Origin: Sipunculus nudus | Lineage: Eukaryota > Annelida > Sipuncula > Golfingiida > Sipunculidae | Reading direction: 5' to 3' | NCBI GenBank assembly: GCA_026874595.1 | Contig: CM049306.1 | Location: 57,418,019 to 57,482,018, forward strand | Length of the DNA stretch: 64,000 bases | In this document: piece by piece, positions 3,046 to 39,408 of the stretch | Numbering within the stretch: position 1 is the stretch's first letter | Layout: every line of letters begins with the position of its first letter | Notes under the pieces: generated by a model | The model's input: only the letters and a program-made list of their open reading frames with translations | Told to the model about the DNA's origin: nothing | The model's database searches: none | Program-made: the position numbers and the translations under genes

Positions 3046-3136
3046 GAAATAAAGTTCAAGACTTTGACCACTAAAGGCAGAAGTCGTATCCATGGGCGTT
3101 CAATCTCAGCCTCGTCCACTGACAGCTACAGTTCAA
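3046..3136 (+). CDS. AHCYL: AHCYL/IRBIT exon A, serine-rich regulatory segment
   Basis: This internal coding exon belongs to the S-adenosylhomocysteine-hydrolase-like (AHCYL/IRBIT) gene. The acceptor is TTTGCAG and the donor is A|GTAAGC. It has 91 nt, 30 codons plus one base, and starts in phase 0. The peptide begins EIKFKTLTTKGRS and ends RSISASSTDSYSS. It matches the vertebrate AHCYL1/AHCYL2 segment around RSISQSSTDSYSS. In vertebrate IRBIT, Ser68, 71, 74 and 77 of this segment are phosphorylated, and this is needed to bind the IP3 receptor. The equivalents here, exon residues 21, 24, 27 and 30, are all serines, with Arg at -3 of the first. The upstream exon carrying the IQFAD-type segment and the start codon is not in the window. 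Joined to exon D, the split codon is ACA (Thr). Confidence 0.93.
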
Positions 3137-3797
3137 GTAAGCACTGACAGATTTTAACAGTTTCCCATCTGGAGCACCACCAAGGCATATGTCATGAACT
3201 AATCCATATCTATTTGTAGGCGTATGAAACACCACTCTAAAATGATGCCTGGGACTCCTTCATTTGGGCCCTATTCCTGATATCAGAGATGCATGTAACA
3301 GGTTTATTTTCAGTTTTAAACATTTCTAGAATGACTACCATAAATATTCTAAATTTCTTTTTCATTTGCATGAGAATACCTTCATGAATATGTGTCAAAT
3401 TGTAATCTTGTGCATGCCAGGGGCACATGGTGTGTCCTTTTGATGCTACACATGGATCTAGTGCTTAGTCCATATTATTAAACCTCCTTGGGTTTAATAA
3501 AGACCATTGCTTGGTGTAAAACCTTATCATAGCTTGCTTTGATTTATTTGTACACCATGAAAATCTGTTAGACATCTGGTAGCAAGCTACACAATGTCCC
3601 ACATATCCTTTGTACCACCAGCATATGTTAATCTGAGTATTAAAAACTCACCTGCAGTTCTTTTTCATTGATATTACTGTCTCTAGAAGAAGATCATGTA
3701 ACACATAAGCTGTGGATTAAAAAAAAATTGTAGGCTTACACTTAGGTTAAATTTGCTGAAATTTGTATTTAAAAGCAATTTTGGTGGGTTTTAAAAT
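3137..3797. other. intron sequence, nothing recognised
   Basis: AT-rich intron following exon A. I see no repeat or exon signature. Confidence 0.6.
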
Positions 3798-4964
3798 TCA
3801 TTTGTGTATTTCTTTCCGCCCAAACAAAGTTTTGCAGATACTGTGTTTTTGACCGGGTTCCGCCGCCTTGTTCTTTTCCGGAATAGCACGCTGAGACCAC
3901 TGGACAGATTTTTTCGAAACTTTACACGAATATCGGGACACATGTGAACTGGTGCCAAAATATTTTGCGTTGACCTCTGACCTTTCCTGCTTTCAGTGCG
4001 TCCATCTGTGCGTCTGTTTTGACACATTAACCCACATATCTCGATAACTGTTTGATAGATCAGGAAAAAATTTTTTGCACAAATGCAGCCCTTGGATAGC
4101 TTTATAACATACATAAAAATGGTGGCGCCACCTGCAACCATTTTTGCACAGCGTCCATCTGCTCATCTGCCTTGGGATAAAATCACTTATATCTCTGCAT
4201 TGGTTGGACTTATCCACCTGAAATTTTGCATGTGTATACATCCTTGACAGCTTTATTGATTTTAGGACAGGTGGTGCCACCTACATTCAGGTTTACACTG
4301 CAGACATCCAAGCTCATATCTCGGGAACCGTTTGACTGATTGGGCCAAAATTTCGCACAGGTCTAGATCTCACATAGCTCTTTATCATAGGCAAAACTGT
4401 TGGCGCTACCTGCAACTATTTTTGCACAGTGTCCGTCTGTTTGTCTGCAATGGGGAAAAATCACTCATACTTTGGCAGTGGTTTGACTTATCTGCCTCAA
4501 ATTTTGCAGGTTTTTACATCTTGGATAGCTTTCTGGATTTTGTGGCAGTTGGCTCCACCTACATTTATGTTTATGTGCAGACACCTAGGCTTATTTTTAG
4601 GGAACTGTTTGACCAATTGGGCCAAAATTTTGCATGTGTATAGATCTCACATAGTTCTTTATCATACGCAAAACTGGTGGCGCCGCCTGCAACCATTTTT
4701 GCACAGTGTCCGTCTGTTTTTCTGCTGTGGGATAAAATTACTCATATCTTGACTTTTTGCATATGTATACAACTTTTACAGCTTTCTGGATTTTGTGGTA
4801 GGTGACACAACCTACATACACATTTCAGCTGCAGACATCCATGCTAATATGCAACACACCTCACTCTATTTCCCCTTGCCACTCAATCCATGCCTAACTT
4901 CACCCATCCCATTCTGATTTCGGCAGATACACTTAGTCGCTTGTCGAGACTACCCGTATTCTAG
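3798..4964 (+). mobile_element. Helitron/Helentron-like non-autonomous element, copy 1
   Basis: The 5' hairpin is diverged (CCGCCCAAAC pairing with GTTTTGCAGATAC). It is followed by a CCGCCGC tract and about three degenerate 280-bp monomers carrying phrases such as AACCGTTTGACTGATT and GGTGGCGCCACCTGCAACC. The 3' end is TACCCGTATTCTAG followed by TT, with a TAGTCG hairpin just upstream. The left boundary is approximate. Open frames on both strands come from the monomers. Confidence 0.7.
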
Positions 4965-5306
4965 TTTTACATGGTGTTATACAAATTTGAGAAGAATGCA
5001 AAGAAATATTTAAAAATCAAAAAAATATTTAAAAAATTCAGTATCCATATCTGGAAAGATGAGTGTAGTGATGAGTGGAAGTGCTCTACAAGGTGAAAGT
5101 CCATCAATAATGAGTTATCATACCTGGAGCCATACAGGTTACTTTGGAGTCGAAACATAAATGAAAGCAGATAATCTAGTCTTGAAAACTATGCTTTTTA
5201 AAAGTTGTTTGCTATTTTCATATATTCATGGAAACTGGTCACTCATAAAAATTTTAAGCCACAGAAAAAAACAGACTCCACATTGTGCCATAGTTATCAT
5301 CTAATG

Positions 5307-5735
5307 GGGCTGTCTCACTAAGGCGACTGTTCAGGTGACTACTGGTGAGCAGGCTGTTGCCACATGGTTGTAAGGGTGTCACCTATATGGTTGGAAGTCT
5401 CCTGAAGGCACCCAAAGACTTCTGGCCTCTTTCCTGTTGCCACTGGATTTTCATAATGTTTCAGATTCCCAGGAGACAGCTTGTAGCAGGTGGATGTAGC
5501 ATGAATTCAGATCTCGAAAAGTTGTCACCAGCGTGGTCGTAAGTTGTTGTAGGTGTGGTCGTAGGTTGTTGTAGTGATTGTCCTTTGTCACATTGATTGT
5601 GTCGCTGGCAGCTTGACGTCAGATAAGCATCAAGTTGTTGTAGTTTGTCGTACCCTGTCGTAGCAGGAATCCTGTCACCGGTTTTTAAGTGACCTCCTAC
5701 AACCATGAAGATCTCCAGCAGTTGCCTTTAAAGTC
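5307..5735. mobile_element. element with long imperfect inverted repeats
   Basis: CATGGTTGTAAGGGTGTCACC near 5364 matches the reverse complement of sequence at 5687-5707 (AGTGACCTCCTACAACCATG). The outer arms AAGGCGACTG and, inverted, CAGTTGCCTT also pair. The interior is rich in GTTGT and GTCGTA. The exact ends and target duplication are not resolved. Confidence 0.45.
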
Positions 5736-7766
5736 GGCCACGTGTATACGCTCCTGAGGCAGCGGAAATCTTGCGCTTCTAAAGAAGCAACTGATTTTCA
5801 TGCTGCCAGCTTTGACCGTTTATGATATATTTAGACACCAGATGGCGGTTCGTTGTAAGCTGAAAAAAAACGTGTGTATGATGTGACAAGCAGCCAACCA
5901 GATGCTAATAAACAAATGAACATGATTGGCTCCGTGTATTCCTCGCTTGGCTGTGTCTTCCACCACAAGGTCTCATCTGATTGGACAAAAATTACAGTGC
6001 TCCCCTCTGGTGTAGCAATTCAGGATACGAGGTCTTAACAAACAGCGCTTATAGGTAGTAAGCCTATAGTTAAAGCGCTGTGTAAAGAGCGTAAAGTGGC
6101 ACAGCCCAAAAAGTGTTACAAACATGGTTGGATACAGGATCTAATAAGGGGAGGGGGGGCTGGGGGGGGGGGGGGGGGGTTCAGTACCCAAGCACAGGAA
6201 ATCAAGTGTGCCAGGAGTGCTGGTAGACCTTATACATAAAGAAAACAACACCAGAGACTTAATCAGGCACAGCTTTTCAGACTAAATCGGGCACTGCCTT
6301 TCAGTATTAATCATATATTATTGTATATTCCAGCTTTTATTTAAAAAAAAGAAGGGGTGTGCCCCCTGAGGCCCCCTCTAAACCTGCCCCTGACAAGATA
6401 CATTGTATTTTCTATATAATTCCCTCAATTAATGCAGTTTCCAGCTGATAGAGATACCCATCCTCGGAAAGAAAGAAAAATTCTAGTTTCTCTCACCCAG
6501 CTTTCTAAGAACACTTACTGTAGACTCAGAAATTTTCATTAGAGTGGAAATGTTGTTTTAGATAGATTGTTTACTTAGATTTGAAATAAATTTGTTTCCT
6601 TTAATATGCTTAAAGCTAGGTTCTTTGTCATTTTGTTATAAATTAGGTTCATTCATTACATTTACCCAGCCACTTACAAAAATTGTACCAAGGGAATAGT
6701 GAAACAATTAAGCTTGTTTCTTGCTTGAATGAGCTGGGTGCTTGTTTATAATAAAATTGAACATAAAGCATAAAATATTTACCGATGATCAATTTAGTAT
6801 TCATGTAATGGAAGCATAGAGTGTTTTTTTCCAGGCCACTGCTTGATAACTTTTCTCATTTCTGAGATATTTACAGAGATGGCAGAAATAGTACATTTCA
6901 TGCTCCCTAGATGGCAGCACCAGTGTGATCCCAATGTGAACTAACTGTCATTGATAATGCCCCATGGCAGGTGCTCTGTGGACCCTTTATAGGTTGGGAT
7001 GTAGATACTTAGAGCTCAGGGGATGATACATTGGTTTTAAGTGGACTTTGTAGATGTGATAGGTGAAAGTAATGAGAGGTGAGCCAGGATCTGGTGAGTG
7101 GTGTGGTCTGTCTTTACTGCCACCAGCATGCCTCAAGCTAGACGGCCAGTCCTCAGAGCTGATGATGGTATGTTTACCTGACATGTTACCTGTATAAAGT
7201 GTGACATGCTGGGGCCTTGAAACCCACAGAGTCATGCTCAGGTGTAGATCATAAAAAATGCTTCATGTTAACAATGTTGTATATATAAAAGTGTGAAGTG
7301 GAACTAATTAATGATACGTAAGTGTTAATTAGGATTGCTACTTTGAAATACACTTTGTTATCATGTACAGGTGAGGTGAAGGTAATCCAGTTTAGTACTA
7401 AATATAGCACTATGATGTGATTATGAAATGTCAGGCCTGAACTTTGTGACAATTACTTGTCTGTGACAGGCTCTGTTAACATATATAAAACAAAATGACC
7501 AGGCTATAGCTATCATACTGTAATCATGTTTAGTATATTCTGGTATCACTGTATGTATACACCTGATAGCCACAACAACTATTCCATAGGGCAGAATCCT
7601 ATCCCTTAACATCATCTCCCCATGCAGTGTTATTACCTGATTCATTATTGACTTATTAAAGTGTTTTAATACATCACATTCAGACAACAAATTAAAAAAA
7701 AAAAAAAAACAGCCTGACCACTTAAATATTCCAGTTTGCATGAGAGCTACATCTGGTTAGAACTTG
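5736..7766. other. intron with one hairpin and a G tract
   Basis: It holds a hairpin at 6042-6081 and G-rich runs at 6150-6179. Otherwise I see no gene, TIR element or tandem repeat. Confidence 0.5.
6042..6081. repeat. 40-nt two-step hairpin
   Basis: ACAGCGCTT pairs with AAGCGCTGT (9 bp), and inside it ATAGG pairs with CCTAT (5 bp), with a 5-nt bulge and a 7-nt loop. No function is assigned. Confidence 0.5.
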
Positions 7767-7946
7767 TACAGTGAACCCCGCCTTGCAACCACCCTGCAAT
7801 TTAGACCACCCCAACAATTACAACCACTTTTCTTGGTCCAGAATATACGATTCACGTAACTTACAGTTTCACAAATATGACCACTGCCAAATTACCACCA
7901 TTTTGGTCAGTCCCCAAGGTGGTCATAATTGTGGGGTTCCACTGTA
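7767..7946. mobile_element. Tc1/mariner- or pogo-like MITE (about 176 bp)
   Basis: TA|CAGTGAACCCC opens the element and GGGGTTCCACTG|TA closes it, giving matching inverted ends with TA duplications. The interior also shows inverted similarity (ACCACC against GGTGGT). It is non-coding. Confidence 0.75.
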
Positions 7947-8041
7947 TATTTTTTCCAGCCCTGTCGAAATAAAACCTAAAATCCAGAATGTTTAGTTATA
8001 AAATATCTGTTTTATTATTATACAGTTACATTCATCCACAT

Positions 8042-8043
8042 TC

Positions 8044-8077
<34 letters not shown>

Positions 8078-8105
8078 GCCCCCCCCCCAATGTCCCCCCC
8101 CCCCA
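8042..8105. repeat. TA microsatellite followed by C tracts
   Basis: (TA)n runs from about 8044 to 8077 and is followed by two runs of C at about 8079-8088 and 8094-8104. Confidence 0.9.
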
Positions 8106-8161
8106 ACTTTTAAGAACACACTGTAGCCTATGGAAACCTTTACTGCCCCCTCAGACTTTAC

Positions 8162-9817
8162 TACCGTAATGTCTACATCAGTTCGTATCCTTCATTAGTT
8201 CGCACACTATAAAATTCCTGAATCATATTTTTCAATATTACATATATGAATTCGTACACCAACATACTGACTGTGCCGATATTAGCTATTGCCGGTGACC
8301 ACCGGCAGTCTGTATAAACAGTAATTGTAGCTATGATTAAAACGGCTTTGCATGCGGAGATGAATCAAAGGTCTACGCTGTTCACCTGATAATAACACGT
8401 CTTTAGTGCGTGGCAGTAACATGATAATTTATCGGAACAATTTTATCAGATTTGCGACTTCATGTATGTAAACAGGAAAAACTGTCGCTTAACTGATACC
8501 GATGGGCCATCTTTGCTTCAGACTTGTTACAGCATGAATGTTATTTGAACAATAGAACTCAAGATAAAAATGTGTTTTTAATCGATAATATTTTGTTTAC
8601 TCAATAATAGAATAAGAAGGATTTGTAAGTGGGACATAAATCACATTAGCTGATGATCATATACTAGTAATCCACTTGGGACAAACCTCGCACAGACCAC
8701 TGATCACAAGCATGACCTGGTGCTACAAGACATCAAAGGTTAAATGGAGATCGTTAAGAGTGCTTTGAACTGCAGCTACAAAGGATATACTGCTGTCTTC
8801 TAGAGTTTTTATTTGATAAATCCCGGTAATGTCCGTGAAATAATTTATTTTTTTCCCGCTGTATAAATCTTATAATTATATCTCCCAAATAAAAACTTCC
8901 GTGTAATTCGTTGGTTGGTGTGGCCATTTAGTTAGAGGCGCAAGAACAGGTATAGTGTGAATTATGTGCCCCTGGTTCAAACCTATCAGTTTTTTCCCCC
9001 ATTTATTTTATTCCTCCGTCCCAGTTTAAAAATATGATAAACATATATTTTTTTTCATTTATTTCTTTCCACTGAAATTACCAAACAGGTAAAATAAACA
9101 TTTTATTTATTGAAATATATAAATAAATCTAGTGAGATTACATATTCACGGCTGTAATAAGTTCACTTGCCGCCAGGTGGCACCCTGAATAAATTTCATA
9201 AATGCCCTAAGAAAATCACCATTACCATTTTTTTAGAGCGTATTCTGCAATCCATACAAATAATGTTCGTAAATGAATTAAATGTTGCCATGAAGTAATA
9301 CAAAACAATAGCCCATTTTCTTACCGCTAATGATGTTACGCACCGCTGTACGCCGTGAGAGACCCCTGGCTAATGATGTTTTCCTTTCATGTCCAAACTG
9401 TGAAACACTTCGTTGCTTGTTTGTTTACCAATAATTTATTTGATGTGTAATATTAAGGTGATCAGTGACTCCTGTCAATTTTGTTTGCACCACAGCCGTG
9501 ATCAAATAAATGTGGTAACATACTAATGAGGTACAAATTTAACAGTTGGGGGTAATAAATTACTGAAGTTCTATTGCCGGTAGCTGGATTTTTGACGATC
9601 TTTATGATCTTTTGTGCCGGTCTGTTGGGCAAGTGTTAAATAATAATTAACATGAGAGTTGCCGTACATCCTCTATTATCGCCCATCACCGGTTCTCAGG
9701 CGTCAAATGATCTTCTCTCCTGCAATATTCTAATTTTTCATATTTTACATATAATAATTCACACACTGAGAAAAATAATTATTTTTTCCTGTACGAATTC
9801 AAGTAGACATTACGGTA
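8162..9817. mobile_element. 1.65-kb non-autonomous TIR element, TA target duplication
   Basis: TACCGTAATGTCTAC at 8162-8176 is exactly inverted at 9803-9817, and the match continues inward to TTCGTA (about 23 of 26). If TA is the duplication, the TIR begins CCGTAATG. No transposase frame of useful length lies inside. A tRNA-like stretch at 8927-8985 (B-box GGTTCAAACC) may be an embedded SINE head. Confidence 0.7.
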
Positions 9818-11598
9818 ATTGATTAAATAAGGCAACCACCCTACAGATGCTTCATGTCATTGCCTTTTACATATTTACAACTGGGCTAATGAGTGAATAA
9901 CATAACATGTATATCTGACACAGCATATGTGAGGACCTACATGTGTTTCTCCATATGTTCCAAGAAATACAAGATGTCACAAGTAATCAAAGAGCAATTT
10001 TGTTTTATAACCCTGTGTATGGTGAATTGATGTTGGAATGTTGATCAGGACAGTACAAATAAAGTGAGCCCATATACCTGTTAGATCCATAAAATTTATG
10101 CAGGCCAGGTTGAATTCCCCCATGTTGGAACTTAATTGGTAAATAGGGGACATTTTATACTCAAATAATAACAACATTTAATCATAAAAATTAATATTAT
10201 GGTATGTGCAAAATATACAAGAGCATTGTTGCTCTTCAACAAAATGTGTTTTCCACATGACCAACAGATCATTATTAGGGCATAATTCCTAATTGTAAGT
10301 CAAATTAAAATTAAATTGATCAGGCAAACACGCACTCCAAGACATCTAGTTTAAATTGATCAGACAATGGCCATGCAGAAACCGCTAGGGATGATTTTAT
10401 CTCGATATAAGACAAAAGGAGTACTTTGGTCCAAGTCATTTTTTCTAAGTACTCAAATAAGAAATCAGGACTTGTGTCCACATGTATTCTGAGATATTAT
10501 TAGTTATTCATGTAGCTGTTAGGTATGTCTGTTAATGTTTTAGATATTTAAGATAATTCTCATGCATGTATTAATTGTACATGTAACTATATGCAAGGTG
10601 TTCTTTACAATGATGTATAATGGTCTCACATTAATTACCAGATTAATTGTAAAACCATTACACCATCTTTTATACAAATACCAAATGGGAAGTAACAGAA
10701 AAAGATCGTTACTTTCTGATTTTGTAATATTTTCAATTTAAAAGTGTAGTCCATACTTGAGTCCTTTGTGAAACCCACTGGAACAAATAGTTAACTGCAT
10801 ACAGTATTTGGTTTAGGAATACAGTATTTGACATGCTTGTAGTATCAAATTGGCTTTAGCTATTACACCAGAAACATGATAAGTATATCAATTACCTAGG
10901 GTTGTTTGATTAGTGTTTTGATAATTTGTAAATTCCTGGAGTGTTCATTGTGGTGTGCCAGTGCACAGTTGCTTGAATCCCTGTTTATGGCTGTGATTTT
11001 TATAAAGAAATCAGTTAAAAAAAAAAACAAGAAATGGAAGAAACTGTCACAAAAGGGCAGAAATTCAACATAGGTTGTCTCTTCAACGTGGATTTCTTTT
11101 GGACCTTATTGGTTTCTTGTCATTTTCCCTAAAATAAGGATTCAAACAACTAGCTCTAGATATTGCAGTAAGAAGAGAGAAATGTACCTGTGTCATTATG
11201 ATTGGTGTCTATTGGCAGTAAATTCCTGTTGACTTCACTGTGGTATGTCACTGTCAGTGTAGTTAATTCTTCCCTTTATCATGATGTACTCCTTTTGAAG
11301 CTTTAGTTCAGGTGTTAAGGAGGTTATTCAATTGTTTCATACTGTATTTTAAAGATGTCAATTCATTTACCTGGCATATCAAGTATACATAGAATATAGC
11401 CTTCCATGTAAATGTAATAGTACCTGACCAAGATTTTGTTCTGAAGCCATTTCCTTATACCTGTACTCAGTTGAGTAGAAATGAACTTGCTCCAGGAATG
11501 ATCAGGGACACAAAAGAAGACAAAAACATAGAGTCTAGACTGCTGTCAAAATTCAAGACAATGACCAACAATGAAAAGATCTAATTTATTTGTGTACA
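9818..11598. other. intron, nothing recognised
   Basis: AT-rich sequence with scattered homopolymer runs. No exon, TIR or tandem array seen. Confidence 0.6.
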
Positions 11599-11766
11599 GA
11601 GAATGTTGGATATCAGATCATTTGTAAGATTGTTTCAGTATACTGAGAATGTTGGATATCAGATCATTTGTAAGATTGTTTCAGTATACTGAGAATGTTG
11701 GATATCAGATCATTTGTAAGATTGTTTCAGTATACTGAGAATGTTGGTATCAGATCATTTGTTTCA
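11599..11766 (+). repeat. 46-bp tandem repeat, about 3.6 copies
   Basis: Units starting GAGAATGTTGGATATCAGAT begin at 11599, 11645, 11691 and 11737. The first three are virtually identical and the fourth is shortened. The near-identity indicates a recent expansion. Confidence 0.95.
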
Positions 11767-12592
11767 GAGACTATTTCATTTGATCATTCTTGAAATCAGT
11801 GTGAAAACATTACTCCTCTATACACCAACTTATCTGACATGCATAATTTTGAATCTATCTGAAATCTGTGCTTACCTGAGTGACTCTTAAAGTTTAAAGT
11901 TGATATTTATGAAAATTAAATCTATATGTTCAACTGATATTCCTTAATAAAACCAAGTAACCATACCATAGTTATGATTAAATATGACTTATAATGCCCT
12001 CTCTTCATTATAGAAATGATTAACATTTCTCCTTTTGCAGCCATGACTTTAGATAGATTTTAGAGATGTAGATATTAATTTTCTCAGGCTACTTATTTAT
12101 CAGGCAGCTAGGTCAGATTGAAATAAAACAACCTGCTAAGTTGAAAAATGAAAATACATTGCATAGTTTTCTTGAAAAAAAAAAGTATTTTGACATATAA
12201 AATTTATGATATAAAAGGATACTTGAATGTTTAAGCATCAGGACTGCTGAATGCATGTGATTTCCCCTTCAGTAACCTTGACCATAGGTGTGGAGGTTGG
12301 AGACATACTAGTATTAATTTTCTCCTTGTTAATTAGTGTGGGATAAAATAAACTGAAGCCAAGTGTGAAGTCAGACAAAGAAATGGCAAGGTAGGTAAGC
12401 AATTAGAGGGAAAATTGTTGTACTAATCTGTGTCAAAACACAATTACCTTTCAGATGGTGTCTTCTTGAGACTTCAAACGTGTTGTAAGAGAAGTCTTCT
12501 GACTTCAGTCATATTGTAAGACAAATCTGGCCATGCCATCTGGATCAGTGGGACAATCAGAGATACATGGTCAGGGTTCACCACCGGACTAC
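11767..12592. other. intron upstream of exon B, nothing recognised
   Basis: AT-rich sequence. No exon or repeat seen. Confidence 0.55.
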
Positions 12593-12786
12593 TATATATA
12601 TCTAACCCTTATACAGAAGTGATAGGGATGTGTCATTAGTTCAGTTGATTGTATCTGAGTCAAGAGTGTAAACTATCCACAAATAGCAGGCTAGTGCCCT
12701 AAGAGTGAGGTATTCCTGGGTCAGACATGTAACGCGAGGACACTTAAGTGAGACCATTACTTTGATATACCTGGCGACAATTAAAC
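12593..12786 (+). promoter_or_regulatory. possible promoter and 5' leader for exon B
   Basis: A TATATATA run at 12593-12600 and a TCAGTT initiator-like motif at 12641 lie within 200 bp upstream of ATG 12787. The spacing between them (about 50 bp) is longer than usual. The support is weak and rests mainly on exon B itself. Confidence 0.2.
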
Positions 12787-12820
12787 ATGCCAGTGGATTA
12801 TTACGACAGTGATGACGAAG
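12787..12820 (+). CDS. AHCYL: AHCYL exon B, alternative first coding exon (short acidic N-terminus)
   Basis: A short exon opens with ATG in good context (A at -3) and runs into a consensus donor, GAAG|GTAAGA. It encodes MPVDYYDSDDE plus one base. Its phase fits exon D exactly: G plus CA gives Ala, the residue vertebrates have at this junction, followed by SYTGSSDEED. No acceptor directly precedes the ATG, so I read it as a first exon with its own promoter. The predicted isoform would begin with a short acidic, tyrosine-containing segment and would lack the serine cluster of exon A. Evidence is the ATG, the donor, the phase and the position upstream of D. I recognise no homologue of the 11 residues. 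A chance ATG beside a donor is the main alternative. Confidence 0.62.
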
Positions 12821-13541
12821 GTAAGATTTAATTACTTCATTTTACAACTTGTGTGCCTCCATCGTTTGTGCATTGTTTCATGTCAGCATCTAGTTTTGGA
12901 AAAGAACAAACAGTTCAAACTTCAGTCTCATTGAATATGGCTCTAATAGTTTTAATAGTTTATTGGTTTAATTCAATGAGGTCAGTGTGGGAGTGAATGT
13001 ATTAATTGATTACATGTATGTATGAAAAACATAACTGGTGCTACCACTTATTTACTTGTAACAAATTATTATGTACTTATTCTCTGAAAGTACTTTTATA
13101 CTCATTTTCATACTTTTTAGTTGAAATCAAAATCATAATTTTTATTTTCTCCAAAGCACCCTTCAAAATGGTGATTCTAGACCTCCGTTAAAAAATTGTG
13201 AAAAAGAGAGCTGTACTTAGTCAAAGTGTTAATTTTTGTGAATTTGTTGCATGGCTTGATGCCTTACTTTCATTGATCAGTGACAAAATGATGTTAACCT
13301 CTGGAGTTGTGTGCCAGGGCTCATCAAATAATTGCTGATTTTGTCCTAGGGCTTGTTGACAAGCATCTTGCACATTGCTTCACATGCAACACATGCCTAA
13401 TTTTATACTTCTTCATAAGTTGTATATGAAAGCTCACTGTAGTATCGTGAATAATTATTATAAGGGCTTGTCCCGAGCGATAATAGAGGATATTATGGGT
13501 GTAAACCGGAAGGCGTCATTAGCCTCGTGTTGAGTTCAAGC
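12821..13541. other. intron downstream of exon B
   Basis: No exon or clear repeat seen. The last 80 bases (GGCTTGTCCCGAGCG onward) are more GC-rich and may belong to the duplicated segment that follows. Confidence 0.5.
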
Positions 13542-13745: not shown

Positions 13746-13989
13746 CACATGTTTTAAAATAAAATCCAGAGTACCAGCTCTGCATTCCTGCTTAGTCTGT
13801 GATAAGAATTTCTATTGGTGTCATAATCCAATTGATCAAATCCTTATCAGTAAGATATGGCTCCTCTATCAGAGTATTATCTGTTAATATCAGAAGTGAT
13901 ATTTTCAGTCTTAGACTGATGTTGAGGGAAAAAGTTTACAGTGTGCTTGTAATACTCATATTTTTTGCATTGTCAGTGTACATTTAGAC

Positions 13990-17000: not shown

Positions 17001-18134
17001 TACAGTGAAGTCCAGATATAGTGAACAGGTTTGTTCCATGGGAATTAGTTCCGTAAATCAAATTTCCGTTACAATGAAATTTCTGAGTATGCCATTTATG
17101 TTGCATGGCAGAAAATTGATAAAAGCACACTTGTGAACATTCATCCCAAAAGAACGCAAAGTTCAAATCAAATCGTGTTTATTTCATAATGAACATATAT
17201 ACAAAACAAAATCCAGCACTGTGGCAGCATGCCAAAGATTCTCCAGTATTTTAGCTCTATCCTAGGTGTCTGGTTGCTGTTTGAAGAACCTGATTGGGGC
17301 CTGCAGACCATCTCTGGCATCAGCCCTCAGTACAAGTTCGACCAGTGAATCATTTATGTCTTCTTCTATGTCACCATCCTCCTCCTGGTCTGCTGTTGCT
17401 CGGATGATCAACAGAATACTTGTATCGTCCAACTCAGCTTCATTTTCTGCAGCTGAATCGACCGGGCATACTGCTCCGCCCCCATTGGCGTTTCCATCCC
17501 AAGACTCCTGATGTCTGCCTCCGTTGCCTGGACAAAGCAAGTGTTGTTCTCTTCGGGGGGGACCTCTTGGTTTTCTGGTGTGGCGCCTTGCAAAACAAGC
17601 ATTTCATTGTTGATGGCAGCCCCATGTGTTTGCTTGTCAGTCACCCACATGAAGAGTGCCTTGTCCAGTTCTCCATTCTTCACTCCGCGAAATTGGATCA
17701 CCTGGCTTGAATCGCTAGCGACACCTGACCACTTGTCTGCTGCGCTCAGGATATTGGAGACTGTTGAGATGTGAACACTGGTGTGCCCAACCGAGACCAT
17801 GGGTAAACAGTGGTGACAAAACCACTCGACTATGGCCTGGGTGTGAAAACCTGCCCTGTCATGTATTAATTAGCCTGTCATTGTCGGCTGGGTTAATCAA
17901 AGATCAAACGACTGGGGAAAGTTGGATCTGACAGCCGCCACTCAAGTTTGTTATAACGATTCTGACTGTATGGGCGAGGTTAATTTTGTTTCATGTAAGT
18001 CTGTTCGGATCCCGTGCTTGAGTTATCCATTATATCAAAGCCAATTTGAACTTTCACTCATTCATTCCCTAGAGATTTGTTCGTAACTTGAGTCTTCTGT
18101 TGTAACGGACCCGTTATAATGAGACTTCACTGTA
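17001..18134 (-). mobile_element. Tigger/pogo-type DNA transposon, internally deleted
   Basis: TA|CAGTGAAGTC at 17001 and GACTTCACTG|TA at 18134 form inverted ends with TA duplications. Inner arms TTCCGTTACAATGAAA and GTTGTAACGGACC also pair. It encloses a broken transposase on the minus strand. The type follows from CAGTG ends, TA target and the pogo-like HTH region. Confidence 0.8.
17262..17800 (-). pseudogene. Tigger/pogo transposase relic lacking the DDE core
   Basis: Two overlapping minus-strand frames remain. The first (17800 down to 17408) has ISTVSNILSAADKW, a recognition-helix-like motif of psq/CENP-B-type HTH domains, then ELDKALFMWVTDKQTHGAAI, typical of the second HTH of Tigger and jerky proteins. 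It passes directly into an acidic tail. The second frame (17540 down to 17262) continues that tail (ENEAELDDTSILLIIRATAD). The DDE catalytic domain, normally about 200 residues between HTH and tail, is absent, and a frameshift lies near 17460. The relic cannot encode an active transposase. Homology is judged by motif, not alignment. Confidence 0.7.
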
Positions 18135-18748: not shown

Positions 18749-18792
<44 letters not shown>

Positions 18793-29271: not shown

Positions 29272-29310
29272 TATAAAATGTGTTGCCGTTAATTACCTTT
29301 ACCTCAGACA
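29272..29310 (+). promoter_or_regulatory. candidate core promoter for exon C (TATA box and initiator)
   Basis: TATAAAA at 29272-29278 is followed about 34 bp later by TCAGACA, close to the animal initiator consensus. This would give a 5' leader of roughly 30 nt before ATG 29335. The spacing suits a TATA promoter. It is inferred from motifs only. Confidence 0.4.
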
Positions 29311-29334
29311 GTGTTTACCGACAAAACGTGATCA

Positions 29335-29536
29335 ATGAAAAAGTTCAAAGTAGGGTTTGGTGCCCTGGCTGTTAAAATGAGTGCACCCAGTCATAAGCCG
29401 GGGGACTCTGTGCCAGAAAAAATAATCGAGGAAGAGCAGGAAGAGTTTAAAAAGAGGCAAAGGAGAAGAAGTAGCATCGCAGTGCCGCAGATTTCCCGAC
29501 GTAGAAGTAGCATCTCTGGTGGTGACTCTGTTTGCT
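29335..29536 (+). CDS. AHCYL: AHCYL exon C, alternative first coding exon with twin RRRSSI motifs
   Basis: An open frame starts at ATG 29335 and ends at the consensus donor TGCT|GTAAGT, giving 67 codons plus one base. T plus CA gives Ser at the join to exon D, in frame. The peptide is highly charged: an acidic stretch (EEEQEE, residues 32-37) is followed by basic KKRQRRR and two copies of RRRSSI (residues 43-48 and 55-60). Both copies fit basophilic kinase sites of the RRxS type, so this N-terminus could replace the phospho-serine switch of exon A. The first ATG has T at -3. A second in-frame ATG at codon 15 (MSAPSHKPG) has A at -3 and may be used instead. A TATAAAA box lies about 60 bp upstream. 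The coding bias, donor and phase support it well; the isoform itself is inferred. Confidence 0.8.
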
Positions 29537-30815
29537 GTAAGTTTTATCTCCCAGATATTAATTCATCTTACCAGTAAAATAAATCATATATGATGTAACT
29601 TTTCAGTTTGCCTGAACAGGTAAAATAGATTATATGCTATAGATAGAAAGTGTAATTTTACAGTCACCTTACTTTGCTGAAAGGTAAAATTGATGTAATG
29701 TAAGTGTAATGTTTAATCATTACACCTGATTTACCTGAAAGGTAAAATTATATAGTTTGATGTAGATATAATCTTTTTCAAATTTAAATTGATAGATACA
29801 TTGTGATGAAAGTGTTATTTTCAGACAGCTGATTAGCCGACATATAATATAGGCTCAGTATTGTGTGAATGTAGTCTGCCAAACACCTGCTTTACCTAAA
29901 TCGATATACACACTTGGTGGGAGTACTCAACAGATGTGTCTCATAACTGACCACTTGCTGGTTAACAAGATTAGTTTTTAGTATCTAGTGCACTGAAACT
30001 AGTTAAGGTGGCGCCTTGAACTGATGAGTCTTGAATGATTATATATGTCACTATTATATGTGACCTTTTATTTTGTTTTCTGAACTTATATCATGAAGGC
30101 AAATGTATGACAAACATGAAAAGAGTTTCAACTCAAGATACAGAAGAGAGTGATTTACTTTTAATCTGATCCCAAATAATACTATATGTTTATTGTATCG
30201 GGGGTGAAGTATCACAATACCTATTATATTGTGAGATAATGTACAATTACAGTGCCAAATTAATAAACTATGATAGTTAATTGATAAATGAAAAATATTA
30301 AATCTTTCACTTTATTTGAAAAGATCCTTAGGTAATCATGTAAAAACGATAAAAAGTTTATCCTCTTGAAGTAGGTGACAATTTACTGATCAAAGATTTG
30401 CTTTGAATTTGCTGTACAGTGTATGTTAAAGTACTTAGGACATCACAGAATAGCTACAGACAGATCCACAGGTGCTGGATCTAACAGGCTTACTGTTTTG
30501 ATTTGTGGTTTGCCTGACAAGTTTCTTCTCTATTTATTTTGCAGTCTATCTAAAAGAAGCCGCCCCCATAAAGAATTAAACATGGTCTGTCTCTTTGTGC
30601 CTCTTGTCTGAACTGTTTATCAGCCACACAGACGTCATGTATAATGGATAGCCAGCACCAGGAGCTGGAGTATGGACTGAACTCCAGTGTCAGAAAGCCC
30701 AGTTTACTAATTTTTCCAGATTAAATAATGTCCTGTGAACTTTATCATGTAATATAAATGTAATGATGTTCATCAGCAATAAACACATGTAAATAAATGG
30801 CATTCACTGTCATAC
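29537..30815. other. intron after exon C, nothing recognised
   Basis: Short phrases such as ACCTGAAAGGTAAAAT recur three times at 29610-29750 but do not form an array. No exon seen. Confidence 0.5.
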
Positions 30816-30817
30816 CA

Positions 30818-31395
30818 GGCCTACAAGACCCTGAGTTTACCATGATCAGCCTAGGCCTATATGGCTCTGAGGTCACCTGGATCAGCCCAGGCCTACAACT
30901 TGTACAAGGTCATGAGGTCACCTGGATCAGCCCATGCCTATAATGCCCTGAGGTCACCTCTATCAGATCAGGCCTATAAGGCCTTGAGGTCACCTCTATC
31001 AGATCGGGCCTATAAGGCCCTGAGGTCACCTCTATCAGATCAGGCCTAGAAGTCCCTAAGGTCACCTCTATCAGATCAGGCCTAGAAGGCCCTGAGGTGA
31101 CCTCTATCAGATCAGGCATAGAAGGCCCTGAGGTCACCTCTATCAGATCAGGCCTAGAAGGCCTTGAGGTCTCCACTATCAGATCAGGCCTAGAAGGCCC
31201 TGAGGTCTCCTATCAGATCAGGCCTATAAGGCCCTGAGGTCACCTCTATCAGATCAGGCCTATAAGGCCCTGAGGTCACCTCTATCAGATCAGGCCTAAA
31301 AAACCCTGAGATCACTCAGGTCACCTGGTTTATACCATGCCAATAAGGCCCTCAGGTTACCTGGAAAAGCCCTGGCCTATAAGGCCCCCACCCAC
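30818..31395 (+). repeat. 36-bp minisatellite with a hairpin in each unit
   Basis: The core unit is 36 bp: CTGAGGTCACCTCTATCAGA plus TCAGGCCTATAAGGCC. About a dozen units lie between 30935 and 31310, with worn units on both sides. GGCCTATAAGGCC is an inverted repeat. Because 36 is divisible by three, frames stay open across the array on both strands, including an 88-codon one; I do not call it a gene. Confidence 0.92.
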
Positions 31396-33434
31396 TCCCC
31401 ACCATTCATCTGAATCAGAACTCTCCTGCAGGGCCATCATAATGTCAGTTTTAAATGATAGTGTTACAGATCAATGGTATTTGCATTTTCAGTGCTCTCC
31501 TGTATTTTAATCATATGTTCCTGTGATAAATTTGTTATACAAATGCAAAGCAAGATATTGGGACTTGCCAGGTGTCTCACAGCAGGGCCTGGTGGATCTT
31601 GATGAATAATGCTGAAAATTAACTGCCACAGTCTTGTAGCGTCATAACCTGATGGTTACTAAATACCACCCATATAAAGGTAGACTAAAGCTCTGCATCT
31701 GATCATGCCTGCATGTCATCAGTCATTGTGATATGTGAAAGGAGTATTCCATGTCCTTATTCCTGTAATCCACCATAGATGTCCTGCTGGGGCTCTTCCA
31801 GCGTTAATGGAAATGATGCATCCTGGGATAAAATGGCATATGGTTACAGAACCATAATCTGATCCACTCTCTCTAGATAATGCCGCCGTAACCTGAACCT
31901 CTGATGAACACCACACTGGGAGGGTTTGTAATGTCGGTATGCTCAGTTTTTGTTGGTGGAGTTGAAGAAATAATTTGGTTGATTACATCACAGAAAAGTG
32001 AGTTGCTAAATCTTAGTGTAAATTTAGAAACAAAAGAAAGAATGTAGATATCTTTAAAATCAATCCTTAAATGGCAAACTTGCATCTTTATGGGTATAAT
32101 CTAATACTTATAAAAGGAATTCGGTTAACATTTGTTGGCAATGTTCTCTAAAACCGCGTTGTGTACAATACTGTGCCAGAAATCATTGTAATGGTTATTA
32201 TCCCCTTAGAGACATAGGTGATATGAAAATAAACAATTTTTAATGTACATATAATTTTGAGTGATTTTTCCGTTTTTTTTCACTGAGCACAGCTGAACTG
32301 CCTTTGGCAATCACCGGAATGAGTGCATCTTGGTCACTCAACCTGTAACACTAAGGACTATTGTTCATATGAATAACGCTTGCTTTCAATGAGGGATTTG
32401 ACCCACGTGCGTGGTCAGTAAAAGAGAAAAACACATGTTTCTCGCTTTATGAAATGGAGAGTTCAACCCAGAAGGATTAATAAAAAAACCTAATTCAAGG
32501 TCCCAATTTCCGAAAAAAGGGATGGGGTTGGGTGGGGGGGTTGCGGGGGTTTCAGGCCTCAAAATTTGTCTGATACTATGAAAAAAAGGTTGCGCAGTGG
32601 GTGGCTGAAAAATGGGATACAGACCCACTGCATGGAGTCCTGTTTGGGTCCGCTTCTGCTACTTACGATGTATGCATATTTCTGTCCCTTCTTCAGGAAC
32701 AGTTTTCTTGCAACGTAAACCATCTTTGACCAGGTCTTCAAGGTAAACAACCTATGCTTTTGCCACAAGCACAGCGCCACAAAATAACAGTAAAAAAATA
32801 TCTGTACATATCGTATTCAGAGAGTATCCCACTAAAAATCTATATTTTCTTTTAACTTTATTATAAAAAATGAGCGCACATTCAACATCTCAGTAAATAT
32901 ATCTCCCAAACCCAGGTAAAAAGCCTGGTATACCGGGTTTATCAGCTAGTCTGTCATATTAGTTTTTATACTCTTGAGATTTAACTCATATATATTATGT
33001 ATAAAAAATATTTTTCTTAGTGTCAGGTATAAGTCAATAATAATAAAATGAATAAACAATAAAGTATTATATTTTCCCCTAGGTTCATTGGTTTGTTTGA
33101 CTGTCAGCAACTTTATGCAAAAAGTAATTATGAACAGGTTTTGATTAAATTTTCAGGAGGGTTAGAGTGACACCCAAGGAAATTTTATAGTTTAACTGGA
33201 TCTGGATATGTTCTTTCATTCAAAGTCTACATGTGCCTCAGGGTGAATCCTCTGTCCCCAGCTTCAAACTGCCAATTGACAGGAATTAGGGCCAGTGCAC
33301 GCTTTGCCAGTCACAAGGAGAACCCATGTTACAGAAGCATGGCACTGTGTACAAACATTAAAGTCTTTTAATTTTGTAGGGGGAGGGGGGAGTGGGGAAG
33401 GCTCCATCTACACTGTACACATTCTAGTTTTACT
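31396..33434. other. intron, nothing firmly recognised
   Basis: A G-rich run lies at 32521-32552. No exon or TIR element was found. Confidence 0.5.
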
Positions 33435-33707
33435 AAAGCCCCTTTCACACATTCACGGATAGCATCATGGATCATCCCGGATCATCGTTCCGGGATCATC
33501 CGTGTTAACTGCGTCATCACCTTGAAAACTCTGGGCATCATCGTGTTAACACCGTGTTGCATCAAAAGTGCTCCGGGATTATCCGTGTTGCTATCCGTGA
33601 ATATGTGAAAGCCCCATTTACGATATCGCACTGCTGTTCCCGGAACACCACCTATTAAGGTCCGGGATGATCCCTGTTGCTATCTGTGAATGTGTGAAAG
33701 GGGCTTA
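33435..33707. mobile_element. PIF/Harbinger-like MITE with TAA duplication
   Basis: TAA|AGCCCCTTTCACACATT opens the element and AATGTGTGAAAGGGGCT|TAA closes it. The inverted ends agree at 27 of 28 positions. A third, inner copy of the right end lies near 33590-33613. The interior is built of GGATCATCCGTG-type inverted motifs. The superfamily is assigned by the 3-bp TAA duplication. Confidence 0.82.
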
Positions 33708-34375
33708 AGGCTTTAATACAGTGCATTTAAATAAGAATTCATGAAAAATCTGGGTTAATAAATATATCTTCATTATTCATTCATGTGTTCCCCAACCTTT
33801 TTCCACCTGTTTTCTGTAATTATTTTTGTATGGACAATTTACCTCAAAGCTTCTGAAATCTGAACAGTAATTAACTAGAATGAAAGTAATACCTTGCCTT
33901 GTGTGACATTCTTGTGTTAACTGTTAATCAATTTTTGACAAAAAAGTGTACATATATTTGCCACTTTTAACATTCCATGCCACAAATAGTGGGCTTTAAG
34001 AATGAATGATGTCATATAATGGCCTATTTGTGGTCTCGCTGATGTCAGTCAAACTTTAATCCACGAATGGAGGAGGCCAGTCGAGGATTTTCTCATTTAG
34101 TTTTGGCTTATTATAGACCAAGTCACTGGAAAAGGGTACAGATGATGTAACACAATTATGTGGTATGGTATGACAGGTCTTATGAAATTTTTCCTGGTGT
34201 GATGCAGTAACCATAGTGATGATTTGTTATTGGTACATTTTATGAAGACTCAATTCATCAGTTTGACCAGAGTCTGCTCAAACACGTTCGTCAGATGAAT
34301 TTCGCAGGAGAGTCCATGCTTCCACAGTCCATGGTGCAAGGTAAAGAGTATCATTCACTTCACATAAAGTTTAGA

Positions 34376-34482
34376 TACAGTGAAACCTGTGAAATAAAAC
34401 TACCTGGAGGACTGGCCAGAAGTAGTCTTAATTCACAGGTGATCTTATTTGCGAGGTGGCCTGTCAAACAGGTTCTGCTATA
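34376..34482. mobile_element. about 105-bp mariner-type MITE
   Basis: TA|CAGTGAAACCTGT on the left and ACAGGTTCTGCTA|TA on the right form inverted ends with a small gap. It shares AGTAGTCTTAATTCACA with the copy at 1821. Confidence 0.6.
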
Positions 34483-37400
34483 TTTAAATATCAACTATGC
34501 AGAATTCATATATCTTGTTGATACCTTAATTGTGAGATTAGTTTAGTGTCAAGGTCCATCAGCATGAGATTCTCGACATCAGCTGCCTTTGCCAGACATT
34601 ACTAAGGCTCAGAGAGTACATACAATGTATCTGTAGATATAAAGGGTACATATAATCAGTGTTTTACTGATACAAGGTAGTAACACAGGATAGTTTTTGT
34701 CAGGTACATACATGTCATTTTGCTGTCTATTAATCTTTCATCTATGACCAGTCTTGTTACTCTTTTGGATTGTAAATAACTCTCTACGTTTAATGTTAAT
34801 TTGTTAAGATCAGATTGTGTTTTTCTTCATTGTTTTTCTTTAACATTGACATGTGGCTCTTGTGAACACAATAGTGCAGCAGTGTTCACAATTCACAATG
34901 TGCAAATACCTTATTTAGTAGGTATTCAGACCACCTCTATATATACTTTGGATCTCCAGGACAGATCAAAACTAGAGTAAATATGGCTGTAGAGTAAACT
35001 TTTGAGAGAGTATAATTTTGTATTTGATACCTCAACCATTGAATACTTGTGTATGTACAAGTATGTACATAACTGTAGTGACCTGACTCAACAGAAATGA
35101 CATGTTCCCTATGGCCATGGGACAGCCTTGCTGCACGATAAATAGACCATTGATTATTAGATGTATACAGTCAGACATACAAAGACTCGGGGGAACTGGA
35201 CATTAAATGATACATGTTGGATGTATAGACCACTGCACAGTCAATATGTGACCGCAGGGTGACTTTCCATATAGTGTACTGTAAACACCTGTTTCATAGT
35301 TCTATTGTCCTATTCATAACAAAATTATGACATGTGGAGACATCTTCAGGGGACAATGAAAACTTAAACACAGGCACTATAACATGTGGAGACATCTTCA
35401 AAGGAAAAATAAAAACCAAAACATATTGAGAAGGCAAGTGTGGAGATCATAGGAAGCTAAAATGACAAGAGCAGTAAGCATAAGGACATAAATTCTACAA
35501 ATTTACATATTCTATCAGTCCTCTGGCTGTAATAAATTGTTGGCTGTATTATGGAACATTTGCAGGTATTAACACTAGTCGTTTGGGGAAAGAGAAAAAA
35601 AGAAATGTATGAATATTCTATGATAATATTCCATAAAATTCTAATTTTTCATGAGATCTTATATGATAAAGATTACATAAATGGTTCTCAAGTTTGAATT
35701 TTTGAAATGAAGTTATAATATTTAAACAAACAATATTCACAGCTTTAACACTATGTCAATTGGTTAAACAACTGGTGGAGGGAACGATTGACATTGTTTT
35801 GGTGTCTGAATAATTCATGTTGAAAACTGTTGGATACCAGAGGATATTGGGTTACACTTGACACCCTCCAAGGTTATAACACTCAGGCTGATCATCTGAC
35901 TGTCACAGTGTTTTATGTTTTAATTTACTTTATCAGACATTTCGTTTTTGGTGTACTAACTGGAGCTGTGTGTAATTTAGCTTATTTTAGTAAATTTAAT
36001 TGTGCAAGAAAGTCAAAGCTGTGTGCTTCAAATAATGAGGACATGCTTTGCATATTATTGTGCATTATAATTTTACTGGATGGAAGTGCCTAGGATATAT
36101 ATAAAGCAGAACAAATGAGCAATATTTTATTGAAATAATTAACTTAATATTTTTCATATTCATTGTCATGACCCATACTTTACACTTGTAATCTTATTCA
36201 GCAACAAGGGCCAACCTGAAAGCTCTCTTATTAACAGTGATCATTTCCACATCATCTTTTAGAACCTACTATAATTGAGAGGATTTGGGTATGGTTCTAA
36301 ATAAATGTTATTCAACTCTAAACTTTGTCAATAGATGTCTACTTGCTACCAAACTTGCTGGATGCGGTTGTCGGAGTACTTTCTCCCATGTGGGTTGACA
36401 TTTTGCATTCACAGTAAAACCAGGTTGTAAAATTCACATTTTGAAATTATGGGTTCTTCAGTTCTTAATTTTTCTCAGGCATTTGTTGTTAAGATTCAAT
36501 GAGCATTAGGCAGGATTCATTCAAAGATAATACTAAGGGACAAATATTTAGCCAGTAGAAATGTTGGTCTGTCTATGCATTAAATCATCCTGTCAGATGA
36601 GACCAGACAGAATCCCCTCTGAATCGTAGGCAGTCAGATGAGCCGAGGGCTTGTGGGATACATGAAGCCAGTGTAACGATGTCTGCCAGTGATCCCCAGG
36701 TTTCACACCAGGGAATATCTTTGACACTTAGCGGATGATCCAGACTGCGATCACTCGGTTATATGGATTTAGCTTTTAATGTAAGTTATACAGCTGTTTC
36801 AAACAGGTATCCCCCCATAGTCAGACACAGGATGTCTTGTACATATTTGCATTTATTGGTAATTTTTGCATTTAATCATTCATGGAATAATGGATTATCA
36901 GTTTCAAGAGCCCAGTAAACTTTTTTTTTAAACATTTAAAATATTAATGTTAAGGAAGACTGGTCAGTCTTCATTACTTCCATATCAGTTTTGCAATTTG
37001 GAGTTATATCATAGTGTCACTTCTTGAAAATTTTATGAAATATCATCAAATGTACTTATAAAATCATGCCAGAATAACAAATAAGCACTAGATTCTAAAT
37101 ATGATGCTTCTTGGGCTTCATTGAAGGCTCAGGTTTGACACATGGAAATATTCTGCCTGTATCTTGTTAGTCTAACTCATTTGTATCTACCCATTAGTTT
37201 CTATCAGTTTCAAGTCCAGGTAATACAAAGTATTTTGTGCTTGCCTGTCTGAATGTGACAAAACATTTTCGCAAACAGCCAAACATGCTGTGGCCACTGC
37301 CCATGTTCATGGTGATCTGCATTTTCTATGTGCTATGAAAGCACGTTATTTAGATGCTTGACATATATAAAAATAAGTATAAATATATCTTTTAAGTATG

Positions 37401-37950
37401 TAAAGATTAACACAATTTCGCATGTTATAAATATAAAGGGAAGTGATATATGTTTGTGATAACTCAACTATAGTTAAAGCCTGCAAATATTGAAAGGGCT
37501 TGAGTTTTAGTGATTATATGCAGTGTCATTGTGCTGTAAACTGTCATTGTGACATTTGCTCATTGAGCCATTTGATCCTGTTGGGTCACAGTTAAAATTA
37601 GATTTCCTAGCCCAGCTGTAACCACAGATCTCTGTCATGGTAGGAAATAAATGCTGCTTACAGCAAACAAGATGTTATGGGTACACATTGAGAATACAAA
37701 CTTATGCATATAAGTTTACACTCACAATCATATACAAATACACACAACTTATCTTTGTTGGCAGCTATTTGTATTAGGCTCATCTCTGTTCCAAATAATA
37801 ATGACCAATGAAAAGTAGAATCTCACCTCATTTACTTTTCTGATATATATTCTGCACTCCACTTTAACAGACAGGAGAGTTCCATAGAAAAAAAATGATT
37901 ATACTAGATATATTATATCATATATGATTTCAAGTAATGTGAAGTGTTAG
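34483..37950. other. intron, nothing recognised apart from one short duplication
   Basis: CATGTGGAGACATCTTCA occurs at 35331 and again at 35384. No exon, TIR or array seen. Confidence 0.5.
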
Positions 37951-37951
37951 T

Positions 37952-37994
<43 letters not shown>

Positions 37995-38042
37995 AGAAAG
38001 AGGGAGACAGACAGACAAAAGACACAGAGAAAGAAAGAGATT
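37951..38042. repeat. GA-rich microsatellite
   Basis: (GA)n runs from about 37952 to 37990 and is followed by impure AGA/GACA repeats. Confidence 0.9.
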
Positions 38043-38513
38043 GAGATTTGTATATATGGGGTGGGCAAATGTTGACTTCATATTATTGCAGGTTATATTT
38101 TGAAAAAAAATTTCCATTGCTGTAACAAGTAAATGCACATATTTAAGGCTTCACCAAATTGTAAATATTGCACAGGTCTTGATAAAAGTGTTTCCTGCTG
38201 TTATTATCAGCAACCATATAAGTGCCACTTCTGTTGTTTTTTACATTCTTAATGTCAGGGACTTTAATTTGTGAAAGTATTCATGATGTCATAAAACACA
38301 TGATGTTTAAATTATTGTTACTTTTTCAAAATAAATAAAATTTCTAGGGCTTCCCATTTTCCCCATACTTTTCGTTGACAAAAGGTGACAGGTTTGGCGT
38401 TTGGAACCTCAAGCATTTTTATTTTTCTTATTTATTTCATCTTATTTATTTCAGAACAGAACATGTGATTGCATAATATAAAAGTAGATACACGTACTCA
38501 TAGATAGGTAGAT

Positions 38514-38687
38514 AGTTAGATAAATACAGATATATGGTTCATGTATTTCATGTGGTCATAAATATACTGCGTATAAAGATGTGCTTACTGCTTTAATTGT
38601 AGTTAGATAAATACAGGTATATGGTTCATGTATTTCATGTGGTCATAAATATACTGCGTATAAAGATGTGCTTACTGCTTTAATTGT
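38514..38687 (+). repeat. 87-bp direct duplication
   Basis: Two units start at 38514 and 38601 (AGTTAGATAAATACAGRTAT) and differ at only about one base, indicating a recent duplication. Confidence 0.95.
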
Positions 38688-39166
38688 AATATACTGTTCT
38701 CATACACTTAAAGTCTTGCTATGGACAGATCTTGCAAGGTCAAAGAGAAATTGACATTTCTTCATTATATATTTTGTATAGTATTGATGATGAATTGGTG
38801 TCAAAATGTATTAACATATTTGTGGATTTTCTGATTTTTCTGCAAAAGTTGAGTCAAAATTTATATGGCCAGTTTCACAAATAAATCAATGATTCATATT
38901 TATTTTTCTTTTCTGCACATATATTTCCCTTAAGTCTGTTAAGTTAATTGATTTTGCCCTTTTGAAGTTCAGCTGACTTCCTGCTGAACTTGAGTGATAG
39001 ATCTTTTTTGGTTGTATGTGCACTGTAACCAGACATATATATATTTCTGTCATATGACTAGGTTTTAACAAAATTGGCAAACATGTTTGTCTAAAATGTG
39101 ACTAAAAGTTATAAATTATAACCTGTTACATAATGCTATAGGCGAATGGTTGTCAGCTGAGCATCA

Positions 39167-39180
39167 TGACCCATGGGTCA
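39167..39180. repeat. TGACCCATGGGTCA palindrome, copy 1
   Basis: A perfect 14-bp palindrome preceded by CAGCTGAGCATCA. The same palindrome with similar flanks recurs at 47537. Confidence 0.7.
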
Positions 39181-39349
39181 CTTGTTTTTGTACTAATTGA
39201 TTTTCCTGTTGTCTACTCTTATTTTTTGTTATGCTAGTTGCTTACTAATTTTCGTAACTGTTAAATAGTTCATGATTTGGTATTTGTCCACCTTGTGTAG
39301 ATAATAGCAATAGCCCACTCTTTCATGATTTTGTCTTTTTATCTTGTAG

Positions 39350-39408
39350 CATCCTACACTGGGAGTTCATCAGATGAAGAAGATGTCAACCCACGAGACA
39401 AAGACCAG
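39350..39408 (+). CDS. AHCYL: AHCYL exon D, common exon joined by A, B or C
   Basis: The acceptor is TCTTGTAG and the donor CAG|GTAAAC. The exon has 59 nt: two bases completing a split codon, then 19 codons reading SYTGSSDEEDVNPRDKDQ after the shared junction residue. Vertebrate AHCYL2 has SYTDSSDDETSPRDKQQ at this place, so identity is clear. The segment is acidic and serine-rich and lies between the regulatory N-terminus and the SAHH-like domain. It is the first exon shared by all predicted isoforms. It ends in phase 0 and reads directly into exon E. Confidence 0.95.

What the first reader, a model, noticed from the sequence alone, without database searches (positions are those of the whole stretch)
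3046..39408. Three interchangeable 5' coding exons of one AHCYL gene, all phase-matched to exon D
Exons A, B and C all stop after the first base of a codon, and exon D supplies the other two. The three joins give ACA, GCA or TCA (Thr, Ala, Ser), so each reads in frame into SYTGSSDEED. B and C have their own ATG and lie downstream of A. Seen directly: ATGs, donors and phases. Known: vertebrate AHCYL2 has N-terminal splice variants (long-IRBIT). Inferred: B and C are alternative first exons with their own promoters.
Basis: partly seen in the sequence, partly recalled or inferred. Interest (0 to 1): 0.7.

Follow-up and report, generated by a model that had tools for sequence, protein, structure and literature searches.

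The report
Alternative first exons of AHCYL gene
An animal gene for an IRBIT-like calcium-signalling regulator appears to have two extra start exons inside one long intron, each giving the protein a different regulatory front end; this resembles a known vertebrate arrangement and still needs RNA evidence.

Summary
A (3046-3136), B (12787-12820) and C (29335-29536) each leave one codon base; D (39350-39408) supplies two, giving Thr, Ala or Ser, then SYTGSSSDEED (three Ser, not two). The gene is AHCYL-type: exon E (48125-48212) matches solved AHCYL chains best, and A carries IRBIT's RSIS plus S-x-x-S ladder. No further AHCY exon was found in the window.

Phase match alone is not evidence: eight ATG-to-GTRAG phase-1 candidates of 10+ codons exist where simulations give 8.7, and 49 of 300 simulations reach C's length. 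Peptide content supports B and C: among 3335 ATG-led sites in six strand/phase sets, B alone has an acidic tail with a usable donor, and C alone has length, paired RRxS and a usable donor. C encodes RRRSSI twice with four silent differences. These tests are post hoc.

Correction: A probably extends upstream; in-frame KMKFAED resembles IRBIT's PP1-docking stretch. Best reading: alternative N-termini, as in vertebrate long-IRBIT variants. No RNA or cross-species test was possible.

The parts
3000..3136 (+).
3046..3136 (+).
12787..12820 (+). Exon B: MPVDYYDSDDE + G, candidate alternative first coding exon
   Evidence: highest donor score of 318 ATG-led phase-1 GT sites in 3138-39349; only acid-tailed candidate with a usable donor
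12593..12601 (+). TATATAT-type sites about 190 nt before B's ATG; weak promoter candidate
29272..29278 (+). TATAAAA, 63 nt before C's ATG; candidate core promoter
   Evidence: 58 of 1411 window ATGs have one at -120..-20
29335..29536 (+). Exon C: 67-codon candidate alternative first coding exon with KVGF, a KKRQRRR basic run and two RRRSSI motifs. A second in-frame ATG in better context is at 29377.
29521..29536 (+). Two phase-1 donor-like sites of exon C, 15 nt apart (exon ends 29521 or 29536)
   Evidence: scores 2.1 and 1.8 by a recalled weight matrix
39350..39408 (+). Exon D, shared: (x)CA SYTGSSSDEEDVNPRDKDQ, phase 0 at its 3' end
48125..48212 (+). Exon E, shared: [29 protein letters not shown] + one base; start of the AHCY-like part

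Best explanation
This is the 5' part of an animal AHCYL (IRBIT-family) gene. Transcripts starting upstream of the window, or just before A, carry A and make the canonical N-terminus: PP1-docking-like stretch, RSIS priming site and S-x-x-S ladder. Two internal first exons in the 36-kb A-D intron, B and C, splice to D and replace that N-terminus. B gives a short acidic start without priming site or ladder, so it should not take part in the phosphorylation-gated binding (to IP3 receptor and others) described for vertebrate IRBIT. C gives a longer start with its own basophilic kinase sites (RRRSS twice), a possible KVGF phosphatase-docking motif and a partial S-x-x-S ladder that runs across the junction, so it should answer to a different kinase input. 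Shown: reading frames, donors, motifs, AHCYL identity. Inferred: transcription from B and C, splicing to D, and every effect on binding.
For: Joins in frame. AHCYL-specific match of exon E. A reproduces R-S-I-S and a four-rung ladder, as recalled human AHCYL1 has S68-S71-S74-S77(-S80) (these positions agree with passages of PMC5173324 and PMC4624786). B: first by donor score among 318 ATG-led phase-1 GT sites; the only acid-tailed open phase-1 site (1351 such open sites in 3138-39349); 2 of 3318 simulated candidates equal its acidity. C: 6-residue repeat RRRSSI with 4 silent differences in 18 bases, 0 of 4000 random open stretches and 3 of 20000 codon shuffles having the like; two or more [RK][RK]xS in 8 of 4000. 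Six-set control: acid tail plus usable donor only at B, and 50+ codons plus RRxS pair plus usable donor only at C, among 3335 ATG-led sites. TATAAAA before C. For B's predicted effect: IRBIT cut to residues 78-530, about where D starts, almost completely lost PIPK binding (PMC4624786, passage).
Against: No RNA, no second species. Anatomy alone is at chance. The content tests were chosen after seeing the peptides, and donor scores rest on a recalled human-like matrix. C's donor is mediocre (107 of 2284 GT sites, itself included, score at least as high) and its first ATG has T at -3. C shows no significant alignment to recalled human AHCYL1, AHCYL2 or to A (526, 471 and 1072 of 2000 shuffles score as high), and no PDB relative (best E 0.48, query one Ser short). 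KVGF-like motifs occur in 507 of 4000 random stretches. Neither B nor C is among the CpG peaks. Short vertebrate variants are not inert: PMC7966362 says V3 and V4 can mimic IRBIT function (passage).
Confidence: 0.55

Rival explanations
1. Only one of B and C is a real first exon of this gene; the other is a chance ATG-to-donor stretch.
For: Such stretches are common: 8 observed against 8.7 simulated. B is only 11 codons; C has a modest donor.
Against: Each is the single outlier for its own feature across six strand/phase sets.
Confidence: 0.25
2. Neither B nor C is an exon; the reader picked two attractive peptides out of chance candidates.
For: Count and length are at chance (49 of 300 simulations reach 67 codons). 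Tests on content are post hoc.
Against: Silent-difference RRRSSI repeat in C; acidity plus top donor in B.
Confidence: 0.12
3. C is coding but belongs to another gene nested in the intron, not to AHCYL.
For: C has no significant similarity to recalled human AHCYL N-termini; its donor could join another acceptor. Joined C-D-E gives three weak Pfam matches other than AdoHcyase (Na_trans_cytopl E 0.038, MTBP_C 0.043, MOV-10_beta-barrel 0.074), all below their cut-offs.
Against: No other gene's domain reached its cut-off in the 7 open frames scanned, of the 85 listed. D is phase-matched, though that alone is about a one-in-three event.
Confidence: 0.08

Closest known systems
Vertebrate AHCYL2 (long-IRBIT) N-terminal splice variants V1-V4
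   Same: One AHCYL gene giving proteins with different N-termini on one AHCY-like body; V3 and V4 are shorter than IRBIT (PMC7966362, passages), like B here.
   Different: The source paper (Kawaai 2017) is not held, so exon-by-exon homology could not be tested; I found no counterpart of C's RRRSS-type N-terminus in what I could search.
Vertebrate AHCYL1 (IRBIT) serine-rich region
   Same: Exon A keeps the RSIS priming site, S-x-x-S ladder and, if extended, an FA[DE][DE] stretch; D keeps the acidic run.
   Different: A lacks the LxRxxS form seen at Ser68 in recalled human AHCYL1; KMKF stands where the recalled human protein has QIQF.

Membership tests
AHCYL (IRBIT) family | AHCYL-type start of the AHCY-like domain | tested here: met
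   Exon E: 3gvp E 5.1e-8, 3mtg 1.1e-6, best ordinary SAH hydrolase 0.0025. Pfam PF05221 only at E 0.009-0.02 and 14.4-15.7 bits, below its cut-off of 25; 22 residues matched.
AHCYL (IRBIT) family | Serine-rich N-terminal region with priming RxxS and S-x-x-S ladder | tested here: met
   Exon A, four rungs. No PDB match for A-D; the solved IRBIT chain 3MTG lacks the N-terminal 100 residues (passage).
AHCYL (IRBIT) family | PP1-docking stretch before the serine-rich region | tested here: inconclusive
   KMKFAED in frame, unique in the window, but it may be intronic and M replaces I/V
AHCYL (IRBIT) family | Complete AHCY-like domain | not testable with these tools
Alternative-first-exon gene (long-IRBIT type) | Alternative coding starts in frame with a shared exon | tested here: met
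   not significant by itself
Alternative-first-exon gene (long-IRBIT type) | Transcripts from each start spliced to the shared exon | not testable with these tools
   No RNA data
Alternative-first-exon gene (long-IRBIT type) | Conservation of the alternative exons in related species | not tested
   No animal genome collection on hand. Scans of viral contigs and genome contigs with C, and of viral contigs with A-D-E, gave no relative; B was not scanned; the genome search unanswered

The most novel reading that the evidence does not exclude
One invertebrate AHCYL gene uses three starts to make IRBIT with different phospho-switches: ladder-bearing (A), ladder-free acidic (B), and a doubly basophilic-kinase-addressed form with its own docking motif (C). 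Isoform choice by promoter would then do in one gene what vertebrates do with AHCYL1, AHCYL2 and their variants.
Probability: 0.35. Interest if true: 0.5.

Novelty: new member of a known kind. Interest (0 to 1): 0.38.

Why it matters
Vertebrate IRBIT competes with IP3 at its receptor and acts on ion transporters, and its phosphorylated N-terminus decides most partners (passages). If B and C are used, N-terminal switching of IRBIT occurs in what is probably an invertebrate, within one gene, and the A, B and C forms make a natural test of which N-terminal features each partner needs.

Tried and rejected
Phase match as evidence: rejected, chance level. Homology of C to A or to human N-termini: not significant. 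CpG peaks as promoters: B and C are not among them; the peak before A (2301-2900) is a CGCGATT-rich stretch. Relatives in viral contigs (C: 24 pattern matches; A-D-E: 14) and genome contigs (C: 181): none confirmed. RNA families at gathering threshold and tRNAs: none. NCBIfam on the A-D-E peptide: one match, far below cut-off. Peptides as text in papers: 0 papers held any of five strings. Invertebrate AHCYL isoforms in print: searches (9 of 9 papers listed; 10 of 55 listed) show none by title or start of abstract; I opened none of those. Searches were further searches; of all papers listed I saw passages of three (PMC7966362, PMC5173324, PMC4624786). PMC5393198 and PMC4930912 are not held.

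Species: not established. That it is an animal is inferred from the AHCYL gene; a bivalve mollusc is my guess from the look of the repeats, from memory.

Full report
What is there. A 3046-3136, B 12787-12820 and C 29335-29536 each end after one codon base; D 39350-39408 supplies CA and reads TSYTG, ASYTG or SSYTG, then SSSDEEDVNPRDKDQ. In-frame stops sit 24 nt before B's ATG and 6 nt before C's ATG. No AG lies in either short gap (read by eye in that output), so B and C must be first coding exons or not exons.

Which gene. E matches 3gvp, 'Adenosylhomocysteinase 3' (AHCYL2, name recalled), at E 5.1e-8, and 3mtg (IRBIT, so named in PMC4624786) at 1.1e-6, far better than ordinary SAH hydrolases (0.0025 at best). 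Pfam AdoHcyase is only a sub-threshold match (E 0.009-0.02), as the fragment is short. The other tblastn hits have E of 4.7 or more, so the rest of the domain presumably lies beyond base 64000. The window shows only the N-terminal part of the gene.

Exon A corrected. In frame directly before A the sequence reads KMKFAEDILLSLQ. The pattern [KRQ][IVLM]xFA[DE][DE] occurs once in six frames of 64 kb, and FA[DE][DE] twice. Human IRBIT has KQIQFADD there (recalled), and PMC5173324 puts a PP1-binding site at residues 40-44 (passage), where my recalled sequence reads KQIQF. So the acceptor at 3045 may be false and A may begin at 3000 (after TTAG) or with ATG 3010. The acceptor at 3045 has the better pyrimidine run by eye, so this stays open. 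If ATG 3010 is used, all three exons carry their own ATG.

Chance. In 3138-39349 there are 54 GTRAG sites; 8 end a phase-1 ATG-led stretch of at least 10 codons. A third-order Markov model gives 8.7 (s.d. 2.8), and 49 of 300 simulations reach 67 codons. Phase match and ORF length therefore prove nothing. Two of the eight come from one 46-bp tandem repeat.

Content. B: its donor scores highest of 318 ATG-led phase-1 GT sites (7 of all 2284 GT sites, itself included, score at least as high); it is the only open phase-1 site with four or more acidic residues in its last six (over 1-39349; 1351 sites of 8+ open codons in 3138-39349); 2 of 3318 simulated candidates are as acidic. C: RRRSSI occurs twice, written AGGAGAAGAAGTAGCATC and CGACGTAGAAGTAGCATC, four differences, all silent; no 6-residue repeat at all in 4000 random open stretches of 67 codons, and 3 with as many differences in 20000 shuffles of C's own codons; two or more [RK][RK]xS in 8 of 4000. 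As a control I ran all phases and both strands of the whole window: among 3335 ATG-led sites of 10+ codons, acid tails are five (one at B, one inside D, one inside C in another phase, two at 50710-50713), and only B's has a usable donor (score 1.8 or more); stretches of 50+ codons with paired RRxS and a usable donor are two, both of them donors of C (29521 and 29536). These features were picked after reading the peptides, so the figures overstate the case somewhat. The donor scores use a recalled, human-like weight matrix.

Against. C does not align to A or to recalled human AHCYL N-termini better than its shuffles, and has no relative in PDB (best E 0.48). Its donor is matched or beaten by 106 other GT sites of 2284. 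KVGF-like motifs are common (507 of 4000). TATAAAA lies 63 nt before C's ATG, but 58 of 1411 ATGs have one in -120..-20; CpG observed/expected near C reaches only the 87th percentile and near B the 75th. The 500 bases before C are richer in G+C (0.446) than those after it (0.32), which fits a leader or promoter but proves neither.

How it would work. In vertebrate IRBIT, priming at Ser68 (by protein kinase D) leads to casein kinase I phosphorylation at Ser71, Ser74 and probably Ser77, needed for IP3-receptor binding; PP1 removes the Ser68 phosphate (PMC5173324 and PMC4624786, passages). A keeps R-S-I-S and four rungs, S34-S37-S40-S43 in the joined peptide counted from KMKF. B has no RxxS and no ladder; it joins D at about residue 79 of the recalled human protein, and IRBIT cut to residues 78-530 almost completely lost binding to two lipid kinases. 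C has RxxS at 46, 47, 58 and 59, an I-x-R-x-x-S site at 58, and a ladder S65-S68-T71-S74 whose second rung is the junction codon; that ladder is not in step with the RxxS sites, so the relay of A is not simply copied. Inference: choice of first exon swaps the phospho-switch while the AHCY-like body stays the same. Long-IRBIT splice variants are reported to differ in stability and targets, and the short ones, V3 and V4, can mimic IRBIT function and influence AE2 (PMC7966362, passages), so a B-type protein need not be inert.

Verdict. Observation right; interpretation likely, but for other reasons than those given; arrangement of a known kind.

Noticed in passing
window 17408-17869 (-): Open frame with a weak, sub-cut-off match to the Tc5 transposase DNA-binding domain (E 0.0077); perhaps a decayed DNA transposon in the A-D intron.
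   Followed up: partly
window 62375-63514, with relatives at 4021-4320 and 41188-41487: 280-bp tandem array at the right end, with related units in the A-D intron and in the D-E intron.
   Followed up: no
window 30867-31368: 36-bp tandem array; part of it (30910-31209) is an open frame on the minus strand repeating a 12-residue unit such as SGPSRPDLIEVT.
   Followed up: no
window 11592-11747: 46-bp tandem repeat that makes two of the eight ATG-to-donor candidates.
   Followed up: no
window 2301-2900: CpG-rich stretch (observed/expected about 1.1 against a median of 0.25) holding CGCGATT-type sequence just before exon A.
   Followed up: no
window 12727-12732: ATG directly followed by TAA 60 nt before B's ATG: a start-stop mini reading frame if B's leader is transcribed.
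   Followed up: no
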